In this document: positions 3,228 to 46,662 of the stretch, piece after piece
Layout of the letters: the number at the start of each line of letters is the position of its first letter
Numbering within the stretch: position 1 is the stretch's first letter
Assembly (NCBI RefSeq): GCF_004331915.1
Contig: NZ_CP036528.1
Span: 2,400,273-2,464,272, forward strand
DNA length: 64,000 nucleotides
From: Ureibacillus thermophilus
Lineage (GTDB): Bacteria > Bacillota > Bacilli > Bacillales_A > Planococcaceae
Direction of reading: 5' to 3'
The notes under the pieces: generated by a model
Seen by the model: the letters and a program-made list of their open reading frames with translations, nothing else
What the model was told of the DNA's origin: nothing
The model's database searches: none
Made by a program: the position numbers and the translations under genes

Positions 3228-4166
3228 TTATTTTAATGCTTGCATGACGTTTATGACGGATTCAGCTGATTTTTTCAATGCAGCTTGCTCTTCCTCTGTT
3301 AATTCCAATTCATAGATTTTTTCCACCCCGTTGGCACCTAAAAGGGTTGGCACACCTAAGAAAATATCTTGAAATCCGTATTCCCCTTCTAAATAAGCAA
3401 CTGTCGGCAAAATGCGGCGCTGGTCTTTGATGATGGCTTCTGCCATTTCCACAAGGGCAGCTGATGGAGCATAATAAGCAGAACCATTTCCTAATAAATT
3501 AACGATTTCACCGCCGCCAACCCGTGTTCTTTGAACAATTTGCTCTAATCGTTCTTTTGGCACTAATGTTTCAACTGGTATTCCTCCCACATAAGAATAG
3601 CGAGTGAGTGGCACCATTGAATCCCCATGGCCGCCTAAAACAAAGCCAGTCACATCGTTTACAGATACGTTTAATTCCTCTGCAATAAAGGCGCGGAATC
3701 TGGCTGTATCTAAAATACCGGATTGCCCCATCACTTTATTTTTTGGAAGGCCGGATTCTTTATATGCGACGTATGTCATGGCATCTACAGGATTCGTTAA
3801 AACAATGATTGTCGGGTCTTTTGAATATTTCATAATTTCTTTCGTTACGGACTTTACGACATTTTGATTGATTTGCACTAAATCATCGCGGCTCATGCCA
3901 GGCTTTCTTGCAACACCGGCTGTTATAATCACCAAATCGGAATTGGCCGTTTTTTCATAATCGGAAGTGCCGATCACATAGGAATCGTAGCCTTGGATTG
4001 GCGCGGCTTCCCACATATCCAACGCTTTTCCTTTTGTTGGATTTTCCGCCTCCGGAATATCAACTAACACCACATCACCTAATTCCTTTTGAGCCAATAA
4101 AAACGCTGTTGTTGCGCCTGTAAAGCCTGCCCCAATAACAGAAATTTTTTTTCTTTTTAAAGACAT
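3228..4166 (-). CDS. mdh: malate dehydrogenase
   Basis: It oxidises malate to oxaloacetate with NAD in the TCA cycle. The protein is of the LDH-like type: the Rossmann motif is [12 protein letters not shown], the NAD-selecting acid is in LVDIPE, the substrate-binding arginines are in [10 protein letters not shown], and the catalytic His is in [10 protein letters not shown]. The start at 4166 gives 312 residues, the usual length in Bacillus, with GGGGG about 7 bases upstream. An in-frame start at 4181 would add five residues. It is the third gene of citZ-icd-mdh, but a terminator-like hairpin at 4203-4234 separates it from icd, so mdh may also have its own promoter. Confidence 0.97.
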
Positions 4167-4202
4167 ATGTATGACCCCCATTATGTTTTTGATATATAAA
4201 AA

Positions 4203-4234
4203 GGGTCGTCCCTTTCTGGTGATTGAGACGGCCC
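4203..4234 (-). terminator. terminator-like hairpin between icd and mdh
   Basis: On the minus strand GGGCCGTC pairs with GACGACCC across a 16-base loop and is followed by TTTTTATAT. It lies 67 bases past the icd stop and 37 bases before the mdh start. It could stop part of the transcription coming from citZ-icd. Confidence 0.6.
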
Positions 4235-4300
4235 AATTTATTATAGAAATTCAACAACAGCTGTTGAAAATCCTTCTAACTATTTACTCTTTTTTAAGAA

Positions 4301-5566
4301 TTAAAGGTTTTTAATAACTGCATCTGCAAATTCAGAGCATTTCACTTCTGTCGCGCCATCCATTAAGCGTGCGAAGTCATATGTTACAACTTTAGAAGCA
4401 ATTGTTTTTTCGATTGCTTTAATAATCATATCAGCTGCTTCTTTCCAGCCAAGGTGTTCGAACATTAATACACCAGAAAGAATTACTGAAGATGGGTTCA
4501 CTTTATCTAAACCTGCATATTTAGGAGCAGTACCGTGAGTTGCTTCGAAGATCGCATGTCCAGTTACATAGTTGATGTTTGCTCCTGGAGCGATACCGAT
4601 ACCGCCAACTTGTGCAGCTAATGCATCAGAAATGTAGTCACCGTTTAAGTTCATTGTTGCTACTACATCGAATTCTTTTGGACGAGTTAATACTTGTTGT
4701 AAGAAGATATCAGCGATTGTATCTTTTACGATAATTTTGCCAGCTGCTTCAGCTTCGGCTTGTGCTGCATTCGCTGCTTCAACACCTTTTTCTGCTTTAA
4801 TGCGGTCGTATTGATCCCATGTGAATACTTTATCGCCGAATTCACGTTCAGCTAATGCATAACCCCATTTTTTGAAGCCGCCTTCAGTGAATTTCATGAT
4901 GTTACCTTTATGAACTAATGTTACAGATTTGCGGCCTTCGCGGATTGCATATTCAATTGCAGCGCGGATTAAGCGTTCAGAACCTTCGATTGAAACTGGT
5001 TTAATACCAATTGCAGAAGATTCTGGGAAGCGGATTTTCTTCACGCCAAATTCATCTTGTAAGATTTTGATTAATTTTTTCGCATCATCTGATTGCGCTT
5101 CGTATTCAATACCTGCGTAAATGTCTTCTGTATTTTCACGGAAAATTACCATGTCAACGTGTTCAGGGTGTTTTACAGGAGATGGGACACCTTCGAAGTA
5201 ACGAACAGGGCGTAAGCATACGTACAAGTCTAATTCTTGACGCAATGCAACGTTTAGAGAACGAATTCCTCCACCTACTGGAGTTGTAAGAGGACCTTTG
5301 ATTGCGATTAAATATTCGCTGATTTTATCTAATGTTTCTTGTGGTAACCATTCACCAGTTTGATTAAAAGCTTTTTCACCCGCAAGAACTTCTAACCATT
5401 GAATTTTTCTTTCACCATTGTAAGCTTTTTCAACAGCTGCATCGAATACGCGAACAGCAGCAGCCCAAATATCTGGTCCAGTACCATCTCCTTCGATGAA
5501 AGGGATGATTGGATTATTAGGTACTATTAATTTACCATTTTCTACTGTAATTTTACCGTTAGTCAT
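4301..5566 (-). CDS. icd: isocitrate dehydrogenase (NADP)
   Basis: It oxidatively decarboxylates isocitrate to 2-oxoglutarate. At 421 residues it has the normal length for the bacterial dimeric enzyme. Visible signatures are the N-terminal [14 protein letters not shown], the substrate loop [17 protein letters not shown] with isocitrate-binding Ser, Asn and Arg, [15 protein letters not shown], and the late cofactor-site segment [17 protein letters not shown] lies 8 bases before the ATG. It follows citZ by about 104 bases, and the gap contains a strong 13-bp hairpin just upstream of the ribosome binding site. Confidence 0.97.
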
Positions 5567-37678: not shown

Positions 37679-37710
37679 TCTTTTTGCTCAAAAAAGACAA
37701 AATTTTATCT

Positions 37711-37752
37711 ACCCCCAAAACATCAGAAATGCCTTTGTTTTGGGGGTTTTTC
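37711..37752 (+). terminator. rpsD terminator
   Basis: ACCCCCAAAACA pairs with TGTTTTGGGGGT, followed by TTTTTC. It starts 33 bases after the rpsD stop. Confidence 0.88.
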
Positions 37753-37773
37753 GTTGTTTTGAAATATTGGCCG

Positions 37774-38010
37774 AATGTCATTGGACGAAAAAACTGGCTG
37801 TTTTCCGTGAGTGAATCGGGAGCCGATGCAAATGCCATCTGTTTAAGCTTGGCTGAAACGGCAAAAGCTAATGGAATTGATTTTTATCAATACTTAGTGA
37901 AAGTATTGTCGGAACTTCCAAGTTTACCAATCCATCAACAGCCAGAAATATTAGATCGCTATTTGCCATGGTCGAAAACAATTCGTGAATCATGTGCAAT
38001 GGCAAAATAG
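37774..38010 (+). pseudogene. IS66-family transposase remnant (C-terminal end)
   Basis: The frame from about 37774 reads GRKNWLFSVSESGADANAI, then SLAETAKANGIDFYQYLVKVL and LDRYLPWS near the end. This is the conserved C-terminal tail of IS66 TnpC transposases. Only about 78 residues remain, the catalytic core is gone, and the frame to its left runs into the rpsD terminator. It records an old insertion next to rpsD. Confidence 0.8.
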
Positions 38011-38047
38011 CCCTCAATCCGAAAAAACTTGGGATTGAAGGGCTATT
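38006..38047. terminator. perfect hairpin after the IS66 remnant
   Basis: AATAGCCCTCAATCC pairs with GGATTGAAGGGCTATT around about 10 bases, overlapping the remnant's stop codon. It lacks a long T-run but could still isolate rpsD from the IS21 element. Confidence 0.55.
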
Positions 38048-38190
38048 CATCGTGCGTACCAGAAGGGTGCGCATTTTTTTATTTATCTCACATATTTCGG
38101 GCTTACAAACAAAAAACCACTTGCCAACATTCCCCAAATACACTACCCTCCTAGTTGGACAAAACAGTTCAACGGGAGGTATTCAAGGAG

Positions 38191-39330
38191 ATGTTAGCAG
38201 TGGCTGAAATTCATTATATCAGATATGAAGCAAACCAAAAAGGATGTTCCTATTCCGATATTGCCAAAAGAATGAATCGTGATCCAAGAACAGTGAAGAA
38301 GTATGCGGAAATGGAAGACTTCAATCCCTCAAAAGTTAAACAAACGAGAAAAGCGAAAGTGATGGATCCAGTGAAACCGATATTGGATCAATGGATTAAA
38401 GAGGACTTGACAAAGAAGAAAAAATATCGAAGAACTGCGAAACGAATGTATGAAATCTTAAAAGAAGAATATGGATTTACAGGTTCAGATCGTTCTGTTC
38501 GGCTCTATGTATCAAAAAGAAAACAAGAACTGCTCGAACAAAGTGAACCAGCTGCGTTACCTTTAGAATCGAAACCTGCAACGGCTCAAGTTGATTTTGG
38601 AGAAGCTCCTTTTCTCTATCAGGGGAAATACGTCGATTTTCCTTACCTGGTCGTTTCATTCCCTTACAGTAATGCGGCCTATGTGCAAGTCATGCCAGCT
38701 CAAAATCAAGAATGTTTCTTGGAAGGATTAAAACGAATCTTTCACTATATAGGAGGAGTTCCACGGGTTATTCGATTTGATAATCTTACTCCTGCAGTGA
38801 AAACGATTTTGCCAAACGGAGAACGAGAGCTGACAGAGACGTTTCAACGATTCGTTTTACATTATGGCTTTGAATGCGAGTTCTGCAACCCAGCCAGCGG
38901 AAATGAAAAAGGGAATGTCGAATCAAAGGTGAAATATATTCGAAACAATTTCTTTTTACCTGAACAAACCATCTATCAACTTGAAAGTTTTAATGAATCT
39001 TTATGGGAGAAATGTGAGAAGGACTGGAATCGTCCGCATTATGAGAAGGAGCGACTCATCGCTGAATTATTTGAAGAAGAACAAGCGTTATTTCTTCAAT
39101 TGCCAGCCAAAGAATTTGAATGTGTCCGATATGAGCAGGTCACGGCTGATAAGTACGGTTTCATCCATTTAGAAAACAAGGTATTTTATCAATTAATCAA
39201 TGGAAGAGGTATACGAGAGCCAATTGAACCGAAAAAACACGTTCCAGATATGCCGGAAGCCATCCGAGGAGTAAGGCATTATGACCGCCTATTCGAATCC
39301 CAAGGAGATGTGGCATCATGGAACAAATGA
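38191..39330 (+). CDS. istA: IS21-family transposase IstA
   Basis: This is the DDE transposase of the IS21-like element. An N-terminal helix-turn-helix (GCSYSDIAKRMNRDPRTVKKY) is followed by the rve integrase core with D135 (AQVDFGEAP), D197 (RFDNLTPAV) and E244 (GNVESK). The 379 residues are at the short end for IstA. The start at 38191 is the ATG with GGGAGG 11 bases upstream; an in-frame TTG at 38155 has no site. It overlaps istB by 13 bp. Confidence 0.9.
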   Translation: MLAVAEIHYIRYEANQKGCSYSDIAKRMNRDPRTVKKYAEMEDFNPSKVKQTRKAKVMDPVKPILDQWIKEDLTKKKKYRRTAKRMYEILKEEYGFTGSDRSVRLYVSKRKQELLEQSEPAALPLESKPATAQVDFGEAPFLYQGKYVDFPYLVVSFPYSNAAYVQVMPAQNQECFLEGLKRIFHYIGGVPRVIRFDNLTPAVKTILPNGERELTETFQRFVLHYGFECEFCNPASGNEKGNVESKVKYIRNNFFLPEQTIYQLESFNESLWEKCEKDWNRPHYEKERLIAELFEEEQALFLQLPAKEFECVRYEQVTADKYGFIHLENKVFYQLINGRGIREPIEPKKHVPDMPEAIRGVRHYDRLFESQGDVASWNK

Positions 39331-40037
39331 TGAAGGAATATGCCAAAAGACTAAAATTAAGCTGGATTCCAGCCAATTACCATACCATCCATGCGGAAAC
39401 AAAGGAGGAATTTTTACTGAAGCTGTTTGAACGAGAAGTGCAGCATCGAGATGAGAGAAGGATAAATTTACTACTAAAACAGGCGACATTGCCGAAAATT
39501 CCAAATAAACCTTATGATTGGCGGGAGATTCAACTAGCCCCAGGTATCACAAAAGATTATATTTTAGAAGGTGAGTTTACGAAAAATCAGGAAAACCTTA
39601 TCTTCTATGGCGGAGTGGGAACCGGTAAAACATTCCTTTCCACTCTCATCGCCCTCAATTTGATGAAAAAACAAGGAAAAAGAGTGAAGTTCTATACGGC
39701 CGCCTCCATTGTCAATGCTTTATTGGAGGCCAATGAAAAAGGTGACCTTGGTAAATTTCTCAATCAAATCGAAAAGTTGGATCTCTTGATTCTTGATGAA
39801 TTGGGCTATATTCCATTGCATAAACAGGGGGCAGAGTTATTATTTCAAGTTATTTCCATGTGTTATGAAACCAAAAGCATCATTGTGACAACCAATTTAC
39901 CATTTAGCCAATGGAATAATGTCTTTGGCGATCCCATTTTAACAGAGGCCGTCATTGATCGGCTGATTCATCATTCTCATTTAATCATCTTCAATGGTGA
40001 AAGTCACCGATACAAAGACTCAATCTCTCAACGTTAA
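39318..40037 (+). CDS. istB: IS21-family helper ATPase IstB
   Basis: This AAA+ ATPase is a DnaC relative that selects targets and activates IstA. Walker A is GGVGTGKTFLS (K104) and Walker B is LLILDELGYIPL. The C-terminal ends with RLIHHSHLIIFNGESHRYKD. The 239-residue length is normal. Its start lies inside the end of istA. Confidence 0.93.
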   Translation: MEQMMKEYAKRLKLSWIPANYHTIHAETKEEFLLKLFEREVQHRDERRINLLLKQATLPKIPNKPYDWREIQLAPGITKDYILEGEFTKNQENLIFYGGVGTGKTFLSTLIALNLMKKQGKRVKFYTAASIVNALLEANEKGDLGKFLNQIEKLDLLILDELGYIPLHKQGAELLFQVISMCYETKSIIVTTNLPFSQWNNVFGDPILTEAVIDRLIHHSHLIIFNGESHRYKDSISQR

Positions 40038-40130
40038 CCATGGAATTTGGCAAGTGTGTGTATGCATTTTTAATTGCCATTTCATACAATTTCTACTTGC
40101 CAAAAACAAAAAAGGCTATCTCTTATGTAT

Positions 40131-40670
40131 TTACTTTTGTTCTTCCATACCTTTAAGAATTAGCTGCTTAATTTCGTCCAGCAACACATCAGAGTAAAGA
40201 CCCTTAATTTCCTCTAGCCGCTTCGTTTTCTCGTTCCAAATAGCAAACGAGTCAAAAAACCATTCTCCCTTGGATAGTAGCGGTCTTTTTAAACGAATAC
40301 GAGAATCATATACGAAGGGGAAGGAATGAAAGGAAGCCCTTACTTCCATGAATTGATACAGTTTCTTCATTACCACATCCTTCTTAATAAAAACTCGTTC
40401 CAACTCCACTCCATCGATCATGTGAGATTCACCCGCTTTATGGTTTATTCGTTTCACCGCTTTCTGCTGTTCCCATCACATAGTGTTTGCTACTTCTAAG
40501 AAACCATCGACTTTTTCTGTTTCGACACTAAATTCAGACAACAATTCCGCTATCTCTTTTACTCGATACAGAGAATGCTTTCTGTCCCCCTTCCCTGACC
40601 CGTTTTCCCCCTCTTTTCCAATTATTCACTATAACGTCTAGAAAATCCTTCCACTGAACATCCTATAAAT
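40131..40670 (-). pseudogene. broken gene of unknown family
   Basis: Reading leftwards, the frame that ends at 40131 stays open for about 160 codons back to about 40620, except for one TGA near 40473 (context ANTM-stop-WEQQKAV). A one-base shift near 40610 would join it to a further stretch (VQWKDFLDVIVNNW). Both parts have natural protein-like composition (LYRVKEIAELLSEF; RIRLKRPLLSKGEWFF; LYSDVLLDEIKQLI). The part after the TGA could still be made as about 79 residues from the ATG behind AAGGA. I do not recognise the family. It lies between the IS21 element and the duplicated gene and probably is a casualty of island turnover. Confidence 0.45.
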
Positions 40671-40981
40671 AGAAAAAAATCAAGCAAGATCTTTAGCATC
40701 ATCAGCGGATTCCTTGTTGTCGTAGCCATATTCTGTTTAGAATACTCTCACTACAAATATAGATACAAAACTTTTCGTTTTAGTTAGAGCATGTATCTAA
40801 TACAATTATTTAAAAATGAAAAATGATTAAGAATTAGACTTGGCAAATCACTTCGCGTGATGATCGCTACTATCAATTTGCCGGATGAGATGATTAAATA
40901 ATTCTAGATGAGGCAAAAACATAATAAAACCAACCAATCGATCCGGCAGCATTAATAAAACAAGCATAGAGGTGTATTCAA
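40671..40981. other. intergenic stretch with a membrane-protein fragment
   Basis: A plus-strand frame (about 40639-40785) without a start codon encodes a basic stretch, then a hydrophobic segment (IISGFLVVVAIFCLEY) and a basic tail. It looks like the last part of a lost membrane protein. Between 40840 and 40910 an imperfect inverted repeat (TGGCAAAT, ATTTGCC) is present. AGAGGTG at about 40966 is the ribosome binding site of the next gene. I see nothing else. Confidence 0.35.
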
Positions 40982-41554
40982 ATGGATGCTTTACTAAGAA
41001 TTGATGCCCAAATAAAACAATGCATCGAAGACTTTAATAACTCTATAAAAAAACAAGAGCATTTAATGGAACAATTAAATCAGTTAATAAAAGAAAAAGA
41101 AGAACACACGATACCTCTAGTATCAACTGTTAGAAAATTAATCGAACACGGTCTAAGCCGAGATGAAATTCTAGATATAACGAATATTTCATCAGAAGAA
41201 TTGGATCGCATTGTTTCTAAAGATAGACGCTGCCAACTACCGTATATTTATTTAAACGATGAGGAATCGAAAGAATTTGAGAAACTGCTTGAGGATATTC
41301 ATAAGTCAAAGGATATATATGAACTAATCAATGCAGAAAAAGAAAGAGAAAGGATCAAGTTCATTCATCGCGTCTTGCTTCGATATCAGAAAGAGATGGA
41401 TCTATTATCCCCACAAGAAAAAGAAGATAGCGGCGAAAAGATGGTGAAATACTTGGAAAGAGCAGTTAAAAGCGAACAGGCTAAAAGTGCTTATTCTTCA
41501 CTGGTCCGTTTTTGGAAACGAGATAAAACGGAAAAGAGAAGAAGTTTTGATTAA
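40982..41554 (+). CDS. hypothetical protein, duplicated island gene (copy 1)
   Basis: I do not recognise this 190-residue protein. It is highly charged. Residues 8-40 form a probable coiled coil (IKKQEHLMEQLNQLIKEKEE). Residues 45-80 (TVRKLIEHGLSRDEILDITNISSEELDRIV) look like a small helix-turn-helix of the type found at the ends of Rpn/PD-(D/E)XK proteins. The rest is helical and ends in a basic tail. No signal peptide or membrane segment is visible. Codons 11-173 recur at 43288-43777 with about 96% identity. It points towards the PLD-nuclease gene, which is convergent with it. Confidence 0.6.
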   Translation: MDALLRIDAQIKQCIEDFNNSIKKQEHLMEQLNQLIKEKEEHTIPLVSTVRKLIEHGLSRDEILDITNISSEELDRIVSKDRRCQLPYIYLNDEESKEFEKLLEDIHKSKDIYELINAEKERERIKFIHRVLLRYQKEMDLLSPQEKEDSGEKMVKYLERAVKSEQAKSAYSSLVRFWKRDKTEKRRSFD

Positions 41555-41590
41555 AGTCTCAGATAACTAGATATCATCCATTTCAGGGGA

Positions 41591-41714
41591 AAGCCATTGT
41601 CGCTTTGCCTTTTTTCTTTTTAATTGAAGAAAGGAAAAAGAAAAGCCCCGCAGAGATTTCTCTCCGCAGAGCTTTTCGACATATTTTGATAATCTTCGGG
41701 CGGTGACAGGCACC
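41591..41714. repeat. island repeat R, copy 1
   Basis: About 120 bases beginning CATTGTCGCTTTGCC contain a run of T, a GC-rich hairpin (AAAAGCCCCGCAGAG ... GCTTTT) and end in GTGACAGGCAC. The same block recurs at 43153-43280 in the same orientation. The two copies flank the PLD-nuclease gene. Confidence 0.7.
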
Positions 41715-41750
41715 TATTCCAGTGACAGGCACAGATCAAAGAAAAGGAAA

Positions 41751-41778
41751 GGAATCAGAGCTGTTTAGCCCTGATTCC
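41751..41778 (-). terminator. probable terminator of the PLD-nuclease gene
   Basis: GGAATCAG pairs with CTGATTCC around a 12-base loop. On the minus strand TTTCCTTTTCTTT follows. A second inverted repeat (GGGATCG/CGATCCC, 41812-41839) lies between it and the gene's stop. The gap 41555-41864 holds no gene. Confidence 0.55.
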
Positions 41779-41864
41779 TTCGGGTTAACCGATTTTATAT
41801 TGTCTACTTTTGGGATCGCAATGCAAAGGCACCGATCCCAATCGCCTTTTACTATTATTGATAC

Positions 41865-43043
41865 TTATCCTAGCTGAATATACCCATATTTAGTAAACAG
41901 CTTATCTAGCTCTTTCATCAGATAGTCTCTCGCTTCACTTGTAATACGAATGTGTGACCTTCTAAAATGCATACTGTGTAATGTTTTTAAGCTAACATTT
42001 GACTTTTGTTGCAATGAAGGATACGTTGCTTTTCCAAGGCTGGCATATAAGTCAATTAAACGAATGCCATTCTTAATCGGAGCCTTAACTGCTTTACCAC
42101 CTGTAAACTCTACAAAGTATGGAAACCTTTCTTTCCAAGGTTCTTCTTTTATTTCACTAGCATCAGCAACATTGTCATGATGATATCCATCTGTTCGAGC
42201 ATACCCAACAATCATCGGGGTTGGCTGGTTATTTTCATCGAAGCTAACAATAGTCAAAAATAACAAATCGCCTTTTTTGATACCACTTGGTCTTGTTGGA
42301 AAAAATGTTCGATTAAGATCTCTTTTCCGTACACCCTTCATTTCTTGATAATCCAAATGATTAGGAATGCGGTCTTCCCCAGTCCCTTCAAATTTCAGCC
42401 AAACTTCTTCCTGTGTTAAGCTAATCTTTGGCGTACTTTGGATAAACTCTTCAAAAGAATCTAGTTTAACAATCTTAGAAAGCTTCACACCCTTTTTTGC
42501 TTCATTCGAGTAAGTAACGGATTTATCCTTTCTATTAGGGGCTATTTTACGAATTGCCTCTTTTTCCTCATCAATCCATTCTTGTATAACTAAACCGCCC
42601 CCTGCATTTTCAATCCTTGATAACAAATCATTAAAGTATTCTATACATTTGGATGCAATTTCTGGCTCATTGCTCAGTAAAACTGCAATCTCATGGTTTG
42701 ATACAAAACCACCGTGAGTAAAGTTTGCCGAACCAATAATGACAGAATGAGAATCAAACATATACAGTTTAGAATGCAAATCTATCAAAGCATATATTTT
42801 CGCCCCAGCGTGCAGTAACTTTTCAAGACCAAAGACACTACTGACATTTTCAATGAATTCTTCTCGATAAAATCGGGTGATTATGTTACATTTTACATTA
42901 GGATTTTGAATAAGCCAATCCGCCAACCTAGAAGCAGTCTGCATACCAATAAAAGGAGAAATAATATTGAGTTTCGCTTCGGTCATATCCAACAACTCAT
43001 TAAATTGATCTAATAAATCATTGGTAACTAAATGAACTGACAT
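41865..43043 (-). CDS. phospholipase D-like nuclease with a C-terminal PUA/EVE-like region (inferred)
   Basis: The 392-residue protein has one HKD motif: H90, K92 and D97 in DLHSKLYMFD, followed by IIGSANFTHGGF. This is the PLD phosphodiesterase signature, seen in BfiI/NgoFVII-type nucleases that act as dimers. Residues about 200-350 hold a beta-rich segment (VWLKFEGTGED, IKKGDLLFLTIVSFD, PMIVGYARTDGYHHD) that reads like a PUA/EVE-type domain, perhaps recognising modified nucleic acid; this is inference. The tail (SHIRITSEARDYL) may bind DNA. The start is the ATG at 43043 with GAGGTG 7 bases upstream; the frame extends to 43283 but that part lies in repeat R. It lacks a methyltransferase partner. 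A defence function is plausible, not proven. Confidence 0.72.
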   Translation of the reverse strand: MSVHLVTNDLLDQFNELLDMTEAKLNIISPFIGMQTASRLADWLIQNPNVKCNIITRFYREEFIENVSSVFGLEKLLHAGAKIYALIDLHSKLYMFDSHSVIIGSANFTHGGFVSNHEIAVLLSNEPEIASKCIEYFNDLLSRIENAGGGLVIQEWIDEEKEAIRKIAPNRKDKSVTYSNEAKKGVKLSKIVKLDSFEEFIQSTPKISLTQEEVWLKFEGTGEDRIPNHLDYQEMKGVRKRDLNRTFFPTRPSGIKKGDLLFLTIVSFDENNQPTPMIVGYARTDGYHHDNVADASEIKEEPWKERFPYFVEFTGGKAVKAPIKNGIRLIDLYASLGKATYPSLQQKSNVSLKTLHSMHFRRSHIRITSEARDYLMKELDKLFTKYGYIQLG

Positions 43044-43152
43044 AGTTTGACACCTCTTTTTACCCTTAATTTGCAACAAGCATTTCCTAAAGCCTAATTC
43101 AACAAGATATAGCTTTAATCCTTCCATTATTCGTGCATCGTTACTTTTCCAG

Positions 43153-43280
43153 AAGCCATGTCGCTTTGCCTTTTTTCTTTTTAATCGAAGGAAAGGAAGG
43201 AAAAGGAAAAGCCCCGCAGAGATTTCTCTCCGCAGAGCTTTTCGACATATTTCGATAATCTTCGGGGCGTGCCAGGCACG
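43153..43280. repeat. island repeat R, copy 2
   Basis: This direct repeat of the block at 41591-41714 has a few insertions and ends in GTGCCAGGCAC instead of GTGACAGGCAC. It abuts the truncated copy 2 of the hypothetical gene. It lies upstream of the PLD gene, so the promoter of that gene may lie in or near it. Confidence 0.7.
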
Positions 43281-43287
43281 CATCCCG

Positions 43288-43942
43288 AATAAAACAATGC
43301 ATCGAAGACTTCAATAACCTTATAAAACAACAAGGGCATTTAGTCGAACAATTAAATCAGTTAATAAAAGAAAAAGAAGAACACTCGATACCTCTAGTAC
43401 CAACCATTCAAAAATTAATCGAACACGGTCTAAGCAGAGATGAAATTCTAGATATAACGAATATTTCATCAGAAGAATTTGATCGCATTGTTTCTAAAGA
43501 TAGACGCTGCCAACTACCGTATATTTATTTAAACGATGGGGAATCGAAAGAATTTGAGAAACTGCTTGAGGATATTCATAAGTCAAAGGATATATATGAA
43601 CTAATCAATGCAGAAAAAGAAAGAGAAAGGATCAAGTTCATTCATCGCGTCTTGCTTCGATATCAGAAAGAGATGGATCTATTATCCCCACAAGAAAAAG
43701 AAGATAGCGGCGAAAAGATGGTGAAATACTTGGAAAGAGCAGTTAAAAGCGAACAGGCTAAAAGTGCTTATTCTTCAGGTACTTGTCCAAATGGTGTGGC
43801 GTTTCTAAATTGTTGCACGGTCCATTGTGCAGTAGGATTAGTTGTAACGCCAAATGAAACAATTTCACAAGCTTTTCACAATAATTTAAATCCTTTGTAT
43901 AAGAAAAAATCTTGTACAAAGGATTTTTTATTTTCATCCTAA
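43288..43942 (+). pseudogene. truncated copy 2 of the 190-residue hypothetical gene
   Basis: From 43288 to 43777 the DNA aligns without gaps to 41011-41500. The frame is open, but the first ten codons and the start codon are missing because repeat R was joined in their place. After SAYSS the reading frame continues into unrelated sequence (GTCPNGVAFLNCC) until a stop at 43942. No good start exists upstream; a short protein from the ATG at 43652 is unlikely. Nearly all differences from copy 1 lie in the first half; the last 240 bases are identical. Confidence 0.75.
43888..43926 (+). terminator. terminator at the end of copy 2
   Basis: AAATCCTTTGTA pairs perfectly with TACAAAGGATTT around a 15-base loop; TTTATTTT follows. 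It lies in the non-homologous tail of copy 2. Confidence 0.78.
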
Positions 43943-44145
43943 TTACTGAAATAATAGTATTATTAATGAATTGAAACTATATATTCTAAAAGTTACATAT
44001 GTGACGGAAATCATTGAAGATTGTACTTTTGTTAGATTTATCCATATGTACTGTATGAAATTTGTTATAATTTATATAAAGATAACTGGAGGAAAAGTTA
44101 TTTCTATTTCTAGAAGAATTGTATTAGCAAGGGGTTGAAAAATAA

Positions 44146-44856
44146 TTGTCCAAAATCATAACGACCACTCCTATTCTAATAAAATTTACTACTTTTGAAT
44201 TTGCAAAGAGTTTATGCAATGGTGAGATTTATATGAATCCTCTTAATTACTTTAGAGGAATAGATGATGGAAATGTAAAAGGTGATCTTTATGAAGGGAC
44301 AGATGGCATCATTGCAAATGATGATATTGATAGAACTTTACCATCATTAGGACTAAATCTATCTAGACAATTTAAAGAGCATATAATTGGTGGTATTTCG
44401 ATGTTAAGTGAAGAACAAAAGTACTGTAAAATATTTTGCATGTATGAATTAAATGTTGATTTTGAGAATAATTTTGTTGCCCCAATTGATGAGAGAATAA
44501 AAGACTTTGGGGATACATTTTTATTAATTACCGATTTCATCGAGTTCCGTCATAGAATCGTTCATGCATTAAATACAGGTAGTTATAATGTTCGATCATT
44601 TACAGGAGATAGGGTTAACTATTATAAACCTAATTGTTCTACTGATAATTTAGGACCTTTTGCAAAATTAGATTTATATAGTTGGCAAAATGAGTTCAGA
44701 TTACTTGCCGAACCGATTGATTATTCATTGGAACCCCTTGTTCTTAAAATCGGAGATATTTCAGATATTTCGATTATCGGTTCAACTGATAGATTAATAA
44801 ATGAAATAAAATTTAAGCAAGATCGTCAGCTATATATACCGAAATATGAATTATAG
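44146..44856 (+). CDS. hypothetical protein of 236 residues
   Basis: I do not recognise it by name. The order is an N-terminal hydrophobic strand (ILIKFTTFEFAKSLCNGEIYMNPLNYFRGID), an acidic stretch (DLYEGTDGIIANDDID), a middle part with CKIFCMYEL, and a late motif (LYSWQNEFRLLAEPI). This order (K-F-T, N-x-L-x-Y-F-R, then E-F-R) recalls small proteins encoded in phage and island contexts, related in pattern to DUF2971-like sequences. No membrane segment is seen. The start is probably the TTG at 44146 with AAGGGG 11 bases upstream. A stronger GGAGG at about 44088 has no start codon behind it. TATAAT at 44066-44071 may be the -10 box. Confidence 0.6.
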   Translation: MSKIITTTPILIKFTTFEFAKSLCNGEIYMNPLNYFRGIDDGNVKGDLYEGTDGIIANDDIDRTLPSLGLNLSRQFKEHIIGGISMLSEEQKYCKIFCMYELNVDFENNFVAPIDERIKDFGDTFLLITDFIEFRHRIVHALNTGSYNVRSFTGDRVNYYKPNCSTDNLGPFAKLDLYSWQNEFRLLAEPIDYSLEPLVLKIGDISDISIIGSTDRLINEIKFKQDRQLYIPKYEL

Positions 44857-44956
44857 TAGCAGAGGTGCATGCGCAATGAGAACAAGGCTAATATTGCAGA
44901 AAGAAGGTAAAACTGTATTTTCCCTGAAATGTAAAACACCTGTAACCGTCAAGTAG

Positions 44957-45027
44957 AATTAAACAATTTTCCACAAATAATTTTAAACAGTTTTCTACAA
45001 TTAAGATTCAACAGTTTGCTAAATTAA
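44957..45027. repeat. three imperfect 24-bp tandem repeats
   Basis: Units start at 44957, 44981 and 45005. Each contains (T)AAACA-(G/A)TTTtCtACAA or a variant. Such multiple repeats preceded by GTAACCGTCAAGTAG (about 44943) resemble the ends of IS21-like elements, so this may be a relic of a lost element. The 173 bases 44857-45030 hold no gene. Confidence 0.5.
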
Positions 45028-45040
45028 AATAATACCTTCC

Positions 45041-45300
45041 GCACGAATTATGGGGGCATCCGCACGAATTGGGATTGTATCCGCACGAATTATGGGGCAT
45101 ACTCACGAATTGGGATTGTATCCGCACGAATTGTGGGGGCATACGCACGAATTGGGATTGTATCCGCACCAATTGTGGGGGCATACGCACGAATTGGGAT
45201 TGTATCCGCACGAATTATGGGGATATACGCACGAATTGGAATTGTATCCGCACGAATTGTGGAGGCATACGCACGAATTGGGATTGTATCCGCACGAAAT
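45041..45300. repeat. array of thirteen 21-bp repeats (alternating A and B types)
   Basis: GCACGAATT or a one-base variant recurs at 45041, 45062, 45083, 45103, 45124, 45145, 45166, 45187, 45208, 45229, 45250, 45271 and 45292: steps of 21 bases with one of 20. Units alternate between type A (continuing RTGGGGGCATac or atc) and type B (continuing GGGATTGTATcc), so the higher-order period is 42. Several reading frames stay open simply because 42 is a multiple of three. No promoter or ribosome binding site suggests translation. It lies between the 236-residue gene and tyrS. Confidence 0.9.
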
Positions 45301-45329
45301 AATGCAACCTCCCCTGCTCCCGTTACAAA

Positions 45330-45364
45330 TAAAAAAAAGCGAATAGGAATTTTACCCATTCGCT
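45330..45364 (-). terminator. tyrS terminator
   Basis: On the minus strand AGCGAATGGG pairs with CCTATTCGCT and eight T residues follow. It lies 15 bases past the tyrS stop. Confidence 0.88.
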
Positions 45365-45378
45365 CTTACCTTCTTACT

Positions 45379-46662
<1,284 letters not shown>

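What the first reader, a model, noticed from the sequence alone, without database searches (positions are those of the whole stretch)
45041..45300. Thirteen 21-bp repeats alternating in two types between an island gene and tyrS
The step is 21 bases with a single 20-base exception, i.e. two helical turns, so all copies of GCACGAATT face the same side of the DNA. Types A and B alternate to give a 42-bp higher-order unit. This looks like an iteron or a binding array for an oligomeric protein rather than a CRISPR (no spacers) or a coding repeat.
Basis: seen in the sequence. Interest (0 to 1): 0.62.

Follow-up and report, generated by a model that had tools for sequence, protein, structure and literature searches.

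The report
Genome-wide 21-bp bacterial satellite arrays
The 21-letter repeats beside the tyrS gene are one of dozens of similar repeat arrays scattered around this bacterium's chromosome, a known but unexplained type of bacterial satellite DNA whose short core and two-helix-turn spacing stay fixed while the rest changes, perhaps because a DNA-binding protein needs them.

Summary
In detail: 13 repeats at 45038-45300, eleven steps of 21 bp and one of 20, two unit types alternating as a 42-bp unit. It is not a one-site oddity. At least 38 arrays (682 units) of the same 21-bp kind lie around this 3.0-Mb chromosome, outside called genes. A sister species has 17 arrays in the stretches read. At 9 of the 11 G000 array sites whose two flanks were both located there, the sister also holds an array, on the same strand, but with almost entirely different units. 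The core CGCAC.AA and the 21-bp pitch persist while the other positions vary widely (55 of 55 arrays). Copy number changes by local amplification: at one site four neighbouring units became a 72-unit array. No CRISPR, RNA-structure, plasmid or phage signal was found, protein coding is not supported, and DnaA is not the general ligand. This is a new member of a described but unexplained kind, the constant-size 20-21-nt bacterial satellites of Subirana and Messeguer. Best mechanism: a helically phased array bound by an unidentified, probably polymerising DNA-binding protein (inferred). Neutral minisatellite turnover is the main rival.

The parts
45038..45300 (+). 13-unit array of the 21-bp satellite; two unit types alternate (about TCCGCACGAATTRTGGGGGCA / TACGCACGAATTGGGATTGTA; the first two units both start TCC); the third unit is 20 bp; the last unit is degenerate
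45040..45047 (+). first copy of the core CGCACNAA, the part that stays in the arrays of this genome and of the sister species
44958..45027 (+). separate 24-bp repeat, about 3 degenerate copies (ATTAAACAGTTTTCTACAATTAAG), directly left of the array; not part of the 21-bp family
45331..45363 (-). terminator-like hairpin and T-run of tyrS, between tyrS and the array; read by eye, similar arrangement in the sister species
45379..46650 (-). tyrS (tyrosyl-tRNA synthetase), right-hand neighbour; the same site carries an array in sister genome G021; no array was seen there in the 22 other genus genomes in which tyrS was found
44146..44856 (+). island ORF of 236 aa without Pfam match, left-hand neighbour
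37684..45027 (.). island (IstB-type IS21 gene 39318-40037 with the ORF 38155-39330 before it, PLD-domain protein 41865-43283) between the left conserved flank (rpsD by recall) and the array; absent at this site in G021, where that flank follows the array directly

Best explanation
The array is one of at least 38 members of a chromosomal satellite family with a constant 21-bp unit. Shown: arrays lie outside called genes, most of those that could be traced are inherited at fixed sites and strands between sister species, they grow and shrink by gain or loss of blocks of units, and they replace their unit sequences, while a core (YA-NN-CGCAC-N-AAW) and the 21-bp pitch stay. Inferred: the core and pitch are kept because an unidentified sequence-specific DNA-binding protein occupies every second helical turn on one face and polymerises or multimerises along the array, forming nucleoprotein patches with a chromosome-organising rather than gene-regulatory role. 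Also inferred: copy number is set mainly by unequal recombination or slippage.
For: (1) Family: 38 arrays and 682 units in the G000 stretches read around the places of a whole-genome search; a lower bound, as one search scored 40 of its 45 first-look candidates. 611 three-copy matches against 0 for the reversed control. (2) Core kept: within-array diversity is lower at positions 3-7, 9 and 10 than at the other 14 in 55 of 55 arrays (38 in G000, 17 in G021), mean 0.10 against 0.44. (3) Pitch kept: 621 of 644 steps (G000) and 563 of 585 (G021) are exactly 21 bp; in 13 arrays that are not homogenised 104 of 109 steps are multiples of 21. (4) Fixed sites: of 11 G000 arrays with both flanks located close together in G021, 9 have an array there (one a 3-unit remnant); five more G000 arrays match a G021 array on one flank. 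In all 14 pairs the strand agrees. (5) Turnover: at these 14 pairs unit-to-unit match is 0.88 in the core and 0.46 elsewhere, much as in 632 non-orthologous pairs (0.86 and 0.45); only 2 exact units are shared between the species. (6) Amplification: G015 has a 10-unit mixed array; at the orthologous site G021 has four of those units repeated as an 84-bp block, 72 detected units in all, and G000 has 3 detected units, about 5 by eye. (7) Location: by script 22 tandem, 11 convergent, 2 divergent, 3 unassigned, against 118, 31 and 28 for all gaps of 30 bp or more in the same stretches, so gaps that hold two promoters are not favoured. (8) Neighbours are ordinary and diverse.
Against: No protein is identified and no binding was measured. 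The core itself changes between genomes: CGCACGTAA, CGCACATAA, CGGACGAAA, CGCCCGAAA in the genus, CGAGCAAG in part of G021, CGCTC.AA in another genus; the exact pair of CGCACGAATT cores occurs in 1 of 121 genomes, G000 alone. A single unchanging ligand does not easily explain that. The unit finder was seeded with the core and the seven core positions were picked from the same data, both of which favour the contrast; I counted the 21-bp tiles inside arrays whether detected or not to lessen this. Directly orthologous units are few: 1 of 49 core and 7 of 98 non-core sites changed in seven pairs, too few for a test; an eighth, less clear pair was left out (1 core and 9 non-core changes). Nine of 25 genus genomes gave no match to the model, so the arrays are dispensable or unrecognisable there. 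Two of 11 two-flank sites and four sites placed on one flank show no array in G021. Isolated cores outside arrays are rare (6 in about 331 kb, about 1 expected; 2 look like single leftover units).
Confidence: 0.5

Rival explanations
1. Neutral or selfish minisatellite: slippage and recombination between arrays make, spread and erase units; the conserved core only reflects common descent or a sequence feature that promotes slippage or gene conversion.
For: Exact units are shared between distant loci in G000: 58 of 363 distinct units, 24 of 38 arrays. Copy number swings widely at orthologous sites (G000 against G021: 3 and 72, 5 and 21, 12 and 3). Arrays seem to avoid divergent gaps. Nine of 25 genus genomes gave no match. 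The core changes between genomes. In G021 units are locus-specific (1 of 290 shared), so dispersal is sporadic.
Against: Descent alone does not explain why, within and between arrays, 7 positions stay while most of the other 14 vary widely (55 of 55 arrays), also in 13 arrays that have not been homogenised and that keep the 21-bp pitch in 104 of 109 steps.
Confidence: 0.3
2. Transcribed satellite RNA: arrays act as small or sponge RNAs, as suggested for the 52-nt satellites of Bacillus coagulans.
For: Satellites of B. coagulans are seen in RNA-seq (PMC8625621, abstract and section 3.2 read); many arrays lie downstream of genes and could be read through.
Against: No Rfam match over the array: three weak matches below the gathering scores lie at 45325-45443, over the tyrS terminator and gene end. 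RNA folding is no better than in shuffles on either strand of three arrays (z from -1.14 to 1.61). The strand relative to replication is mixed: of 31 arrays with a clear local GC skew 14 lie on the leading and 17 on the lagging strand, 7 unclear. A fixed 21-bp pitch has no obvious use in RNA.
Confidence: 0.12
3. Replication control or DnaA titration array: the unit TATCCGCAC is a degenerate DnaA box.
For: TATCCGCA differs by one base from TATCCACA; one G021 array (L131) contains 7 perfect TTATCCACA boxes, and another (L134:17249) 20 boxes with up to one mismatch.
Against: 0 perfect boxes in 14,644 bp of G000 arrays and 0 in the other 16 G021 arrays; many units begin AACGCAC or TACGCAC, far from the box.
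Confidence: 0.03
4. Plasmid- or phage-type iteron origin carried in by the adjacent island.
For: 21-bp direct repeats with two-turn spacing resemble iterons in geometry.
Against: G021 has the array at this site without the island, so the array is probably older; at least 38 dispersed arrays; no initiator gene among 26 proteins scanned; no matches in plasmids, phages or viral contigs.
Confidence: 0.01
5. Coding repeat (seven-residue peptide repeat).
For: 21 bp is 7 codons, and some frames have few stops: + frame 0, 8 of 455 distinct G000 units; - frame 1, 8 of 455; - frame 2, 24 of 455. In - frame 2 the diversity falls mostly on third codon positions (from the per-position values) and pN/pS is 0.72 in G000 and 0.81 in G021, the direction expected of coding, though weak.
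Against: No frame shows strong constraint (pN/pS 0.60-1.79 in G000, 0.67-1.11 in G021; the 0.60 frame has stops in 178 of 455 units). - frame 2 is open across only 13 of 25 G000 and 4 of 15 G021 arrays of 8 or more units, and 9 of the 40 have no open frame. In + frame 0 diversity peaks at codon position 2. The 20-bp unit breaks the frame in the window array.
Confidence: 0.03

Closest known systems
Constant-size 20-21-nt bacterial tandem repeats ('satellites') of Subirana and Messeguer (PMC8161180: abstract, Introduction, Methods, Results and most of the Discussion read as parts 1-3 of 5, plus table passages; the earlier J. Bacteriol. 2020 paper PMC7549362 is not held; of PMC6749651 only the abstract was read)
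   Same: 20-21 nt units of constant size, variable sequence, many arrays and several families per genome, a short characteristic sequence in the units, in general non-coding, and the note that the length equals two helix turns; the authors already propose a protein that polymerises on the DNA and nucleoid stabilisation, with small RNAs as alternative.
   Different: They describe the families as species-specific and without sequence conservation; the characteristic sequence they give for a 21-nt species (B. weihaiensis) is TCGCGG, not the core seen here. Here related cores are traced through a genus, array sites are shown to be orthologous between species while units turn over, and an amplification step is seen unit by unit.
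STAR elements of Staphylococcus (PMC3532100; abstract, Background and Discussion read)
   Same: Dispersed intergenic direct repeats of unknown function, variable in copy number, conserved motif with variable spacer.
   Different: Different motif (14 bp, T(G/A/T)TGTTG(G/T)GGCCC(C/A)) and spacers of at least 40 bp. STAR sites differ between species and spacers are locus-specific, whereas here most sites testable on both flanks are shared by two species and in G000 identical units occur at distant loci.
Plasmid iterons (recalled)
   Same: Direct repeats of about 17-22 bp, phased by two helical turns, bound by a protein.
   Different: Few copies next to an initiator gene at one origin; here at least 38 chromosomal arrays and no such gene among the proteins scanned.
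DnaA-box clusters of Bacillus (recalled)
   Same: Chromosomal protein-binding clusters; one G021 array contains perfect DnaA boxes.
   Different: The other 54 arrays lack the perfect box.

Membership tests
20-21-nt constant-size bacterial satellites (Subirana and Messeguer) | Unit length constant at 20-21 nt | tested here: met
   621 of 644 steps in G000 and 563 of 585 in G021 are 21 bp; several other genus genomes mix 21 and 19 bp
20-21-nt constant-size bacterial satellites (Subirana and Messeguer) | Many arrays and several sequence families per genome | tested here: met
   At least 38 arrays in G000, 17 in the G021 stretches read, with distinct units
20-21-nt constant-size bacterial satellites (Subirana and Messeguer) | Short characteristic sequence in the units of a genome | tested here: met
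   CGCAC.AA; G021 also has a CGAGCAAG type
[quoted passage not shown]
   genes called by a simple script, edge overlaps of 10 and 15 bp at two arrays
20-21-nt constant-size bacterial satellites (Subirana and Messeguer) | Families are species-specific | tested here: inconclusive
   Units are species-specific (2 exact units shared by G000 and G021), but related cores recur in the genus and in at least two other genera of the family
STAR elements | 14-bp motif with spacers of 40 bp or more | tested here: not met
   Unit consensus WMCGCACNAAWTGRRGNRGYA, head to tail
Iteron-type origin | Adjacent replication-initiator gene | tested here: not met
   None among 26 proteins scanned (6 from the window, 20 at other arrays; not every flanking gene was scanned)
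Iteron-type origin | Supports replication when cloned | not testable with these tools
   Needs an experiment
CRISPR array | Repeats separated by unique spacers of similar length | tested here: not met
   Head-to-tail units without spacers
DnaA-box cluster | Several TTATCCACA boxes | tested here: not met
   0 exact boxes in 14,644 bp of G000 arrays; 7 in one of 17 G021 arrays
Protein-binding array (mechanism) | A protein that binds the core | not testable with these tools
   Needs pull-down, EMSA or ChIP

The most novel reading that the evidence does not exclude
The arrays are a bacterial counterpart of centromere-like satellites: chromosome-wide, helically phased platforms for a dedicated polymerising protein whose recognition core co-evolves with the satellite from species to species, with units freely replaced as long as the core and the two-turn pitch are kept.
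Probability: 0.2. Interest if true: 0.75.

Novelty: new member of a known kind. Interest (0 to 1): 0.45.

Why it matters
Constant-size 20-21-nt satellites have been catalogued in bacteria, but the papers I read give no established function. This genus gives a handle: a defined core, a fixed pitch, orthologous sites in sister species with swapped units, and genomes with hundreds of units beside relatives in which none was found. That makes the protein-platform idea directly testable by pull-down with core or pitch mutants and by comparing array-rich with array-free species. Two G000 arrays 119 kb apart correspond to one G021 array, so arrays also coincide with at least one insertion or rearrangement boundary and may bear on chromosome stability.

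Tried and rejected
Origin clustering (rejected): DnaA boxes at L084 first suggested that oriC lies at about 980 kb and that arrays cluster around it (permutation). The neighbouring genes, recognised from recall, are of rho, tdk, prfA, spoIIR and ywlC type, so I take this for a DnaA-box cluster and not oriC. Gene strand and GC skew of the stretches put the origin between about 0.27 and 0.51 Mb (inferred). The p-values are therefore void. Still true: 360 of 682 units lie at 977-1167 kb, and a like concentration occurs in G021 at 2930-3119 kb (347 of 602 detected units); unexplained.

Strand polarity (rejected): 14 arrays on the leading strand, 17 on the lagging, 7 unclear.

RNA element (rejected as main reading). 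Coding repeat (rejected, but see the weak signal in - frame 2 told under rivals; on recheck I raised it from 0.02 to 0.03 for that reason). DnaA titration (rejected). PurR box: the CCGAAC variant of some units recalls the PurBox (consensus recalled); 1 PurBox-like match in G000 arrays and 0 in G021 arrays against 13 in the surrounding 331 kb, not pursued.

Rearrangement (not resolved): the G021 array L133:3848-5835 has as flanks the left flank of G000 array 1011220 (ssb-like gene, by recall) and the right flank (SNF2-type helicase) of G000 array 1130943, which are 119 kb apart in G000; these two arrays share 12 exact units, the most of any pair. The left neighbourhood of 1130943 gave only short, repeated, mobile-element-like matches in G021, so the path is unknown.

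Pattern scan of named genomes: 21 stretches. 6 of the 21 (L033-L037, L046) were run through TRF: L036 (a contig titled Akkermansia MAG) has a 97%-uniform 21-bp array with the core, L035 two copies, L037 an 18-bp repeat, L034 a 42-bp array of another kind, L033 and L046 nothing of period 18 or more. The other 15 were not followed up.

Gene context tally: made by a simple script. At 1165818 the 'divergent' label rests on an ORF that runs through the array (by its other neighbours it is tandem), and the window array is labelled tandem because the script passed over ORF 44146-44856 (with it, convergent).

Other-genus matches of the model: my first motif scan printed nothing for L160 and L163; on recheck L163 and L164 hold about three 21-bp units with CGCACGTAA/CGCACATAA/CGCCCGTAA, and L160 and L165 hold 42/21-bp arrays with the core CGCTC.AA. 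The two genomes of the third genus were not read.

Literature: searched openly licensed PMC papers only; I found no description of this core, but the supplementary tables of the Subirana papers were not open to me, so it may be listed there.

Full report
What is there. The array is real: 13 units from 45038 to 45300, eleven 21-bp steps and one 20-bp step, two unit types alternating as a 42-bp unit (TRF period 42, 6.2 copies, 92% match). Ten exact GCACGAATT occur in the window, all in the array, against 0.82 expected and 0 of 100 shuffles reaching 10. Three of the 13 units have one change in that 9-mer.

It is a genome-wide family. The window is part of a 3,017,325-bp chromosome (G000). A three-copy pattern with up to 2 mismatches gave 611 matches in G000 and 0 for the reversed control. 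A BLAST search of the whole genome with one array gave 49 matches, 40 of 45 first-look candidates being scored. Reading the stretches around them with a position weight matrix gave 38 arrays and 682 units, 3 to 63 units each; this is a lower bound. Consensus: WMCGCACNAAWTGRRGNRGYA. No array lies inside a called gene, leaving aside ORF-like runs through the arrays themselves; two arrays overlap a neighbour by 10 and 15 bp at the edge, and one ORF that spans a run of N reaches into an array. By script 22 arrays lie between genes in tandem, 11 convergent, 2 divergent and 3 unassigned, where all gaps of at least 30 bp in the same stretches are 118, 31 and 28 (genes called by a simple script of mine, two labels doubtful, see Tried and rejected). 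Of 26 proteins scanned, most match ordinary enzymes, transporters, surface proteins, regulators or transposases; one had no Pfam match, two only matches below the cut-off, and none was called an initiator or ParB.

Sites are inherited, units are not. G021 is the closest genome found (TyrS 97% identical). In the stretches of it that I read it has 17 arrays and 602 detected units. Eleven G000 arrays have both flanks located close together there. Nine of these eleven sites hold an array in G021 (97176, 752622, 977593, 1080433, 1085921, 1139915, 1826218, 2766746, 2881967; at 2766746 only 3 units) and two do not (124865, 1141972). Five more G000 arrays, including the window array, match a G021 array on one flank (268680, 1015541, 1011220, 1130943, 2445310; 1011220 and 1130943 both map to one G021 array), and four placed on one flank show none (1018898, 1074303, 806986, 2993846). 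The remaining 18 could not be placed in the stretches I had. In all 14 pairs the strand is the same. Unit sequences at these pairs match at 0.88 in the core and 0.46 elsewhere, close to 632 non-orthologous pairs (0.86 and 0.45). At the tyrS site, tyrS was found in 24 of 25 genus genomes; besides G000 only G021 shows an array in the roughly 1.5 kb downstream (for 17 of the 24 loci this rests on a core-motif scan, for 7 also on the printed sequence).

How arrays change. At the 1015541 site G015 has 10 mixed units. G021 has four neighbouring units of that set repeated as an 84-bp block, 72 units detected in all. G000 keeps about five units by eye (three pass the detector). At 97176 the first two and the last units are recognisable across G000, G015 and G021 while the interior of the G000 array differs. 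In G000, 58 of 363 distinct units occur in more than one array, involving 24 of 38 arrays; in G021 only 1 of 290. So local amplification is shown, and copying between loci has been frequent in G000 but not in G021.

What stays. Within arrays, diversity at positions 3-7, 9 and 10 is below that of the other 14 positions in 55 of 55 arrays (0.10 against 0.44 on average over distinct units; 0.75 would be random), counting the 21-bp tiles between the first and last detected unit. The A at position 21 is also kept (diversity 0.07 and 0.14) although it was counted with the rest. The seven positions were picked after seeing the data. In 13 arrays that are not homogenised, 104 of 109 steps are multiples of 21 bp. 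Between seven directly orthologous units of G000 and G015, 1 of 49 core and 7 of 98 non-core sites differ; an eighth, less clear pair was left out (1 core and 9 non-core differences). The trend agrees but the numbers are too small for a test. Twenty-one bp equals two turns of B-DNA (established knowledge). In several other genomes of the genus 21-bp steps are mixed with 19-bp steps, giving higher-order units of 61, 82 and 103 bp.

How far it reaches. The exact pair of CGCACGAATT cores occurs in 1 of 121 genomes, G000. With up to 3 mismatches in a three-copy pattern 18 of 25 genus genomes match; the reversed control gives 1 or 2 matches in 5 of the 25. With a sequence model of three units, 23 of 200 genomes of the family match at E up to 1e-4: 16 of 25 in the genus and 7 in three other genera. 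Four of those seven were read at the match: about three units with CGCACGTAA-like cores in two genomes of one genus, and 42/21-bp arrays with the core CGCTC.AA in two of another. Of 299 genomes drawn from the class, 5 match, all in the same family. These model searches use strict filters and lose weak matches. Plasmids, phages and viral contigs gave nothing (the first two by blastn with the window array, the last by exact pattern).

What it is not. Coding is not supported: pN/pS is 0.60-1.79 in G000 and 0.67-1.11 in G021 over six frames, and no frame is open in 9 of 40 larger arrays; one minus-strand frame shows a weak coding-like pattern (third-position diversity, pN/pS 0.72 and 0.81) but is open across only 13 of 25 and 4 of 15 arrays. 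Not a CRISPR: no spacers. No known structured RNA over the array. Not a general DnaA-box array. Probably not brought in by the island: G021 has the array without the island.

Mechanism. Position-specific conservation of a short core together with a fixed two-turn pitch, in arrays whose other letters are free to change, is what a phased protein-binding platform would leave behind. That the protein exists is inference. A sequence-driven recombination process without a ligand could in principle keep a core too, and the changing core between genomes and the lack of matches in 9 of 25 genus genomes argue for caution. I put the protein platform at about one half.

Known kind. Subirana and Messeguer described bacterial tandem repeats with constant size (20-21 or 52 nt) and variable sequence, with a short signal in the units, noted the two-turn length and proposed a polymerising protein (PMC8161180). 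The present family meets the features I could test, apart from species specificity, which is mixed, so it is a new member of that kind. What is added here: related cores traced through a genus, orthologous sites with replaced units, and one amplification step resolved unit by unit. STAR elements of staphylococci (PMC3532100) are a looser relative in behaviour, not in sequence.

Noticed in passing
L063 (G003:C43), 820-1438 and 1476-1533: A 52-nt tandem array (11.9 copies) stands about 40 bp from a 21-bp array: both published constant-size satellite classes side by side.
   Followed up: no
L126, L133, L134 (G021): A second 21-bp family with core CGAGCAAG (TATCCGAGCAAGAGGAGTGAT) lies next to the CGCAC arrays, as if one core type had given rise to another.
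   Followed up: partly
L131 (G021), array 4028-4384: The 17-unit array contains seven perfect DnaA boxes TTATCCACA; no G000 array has one.
   Followed up: partly
L084, 7254-7332: Three perfect DnaA boxes in front of a ywlC-like gene (gene name recalled), about 3 kb from a satellite array.
   Followed up: partly
window 44958-45027: A different, 24-bp tandem repeat (about 3 degenerate copies) directly beside the array.
   Followed up: partly
window 40982-41554 and 43652-43942: Partial duplication inside the island: both ORFs share the stretch LRYQKEMDLLSPQEKEDSGEKMVKYLERAVKSEQAKSAYSS.
   Followed up: no
G000 977-1167 kb and G021 2930-3119 kb: More than half of the detected units lie in this one stretch of the chromosome in both species (360 of 682; 347 of 602); it does not seem to be the origin.
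   Followed up: partly
L036, 3038-3221 (contig titled as an Akkermansia MAG): A 21-bp array (8.7 copies, 97% uniform, unit GGGCATCGCACGAATAGCACG) with the same core in an unrelated bacterium or a contaminant contig.
   Followed up: no
L163 and L164 (two species of another genus), about 1499-1554: The same three-unit mini-array with CGCACATAA/CGCACGTAA/CGCCCGTAA cores at what looks like the same site in both species: a short array kept without amplification.
   Followed up: no
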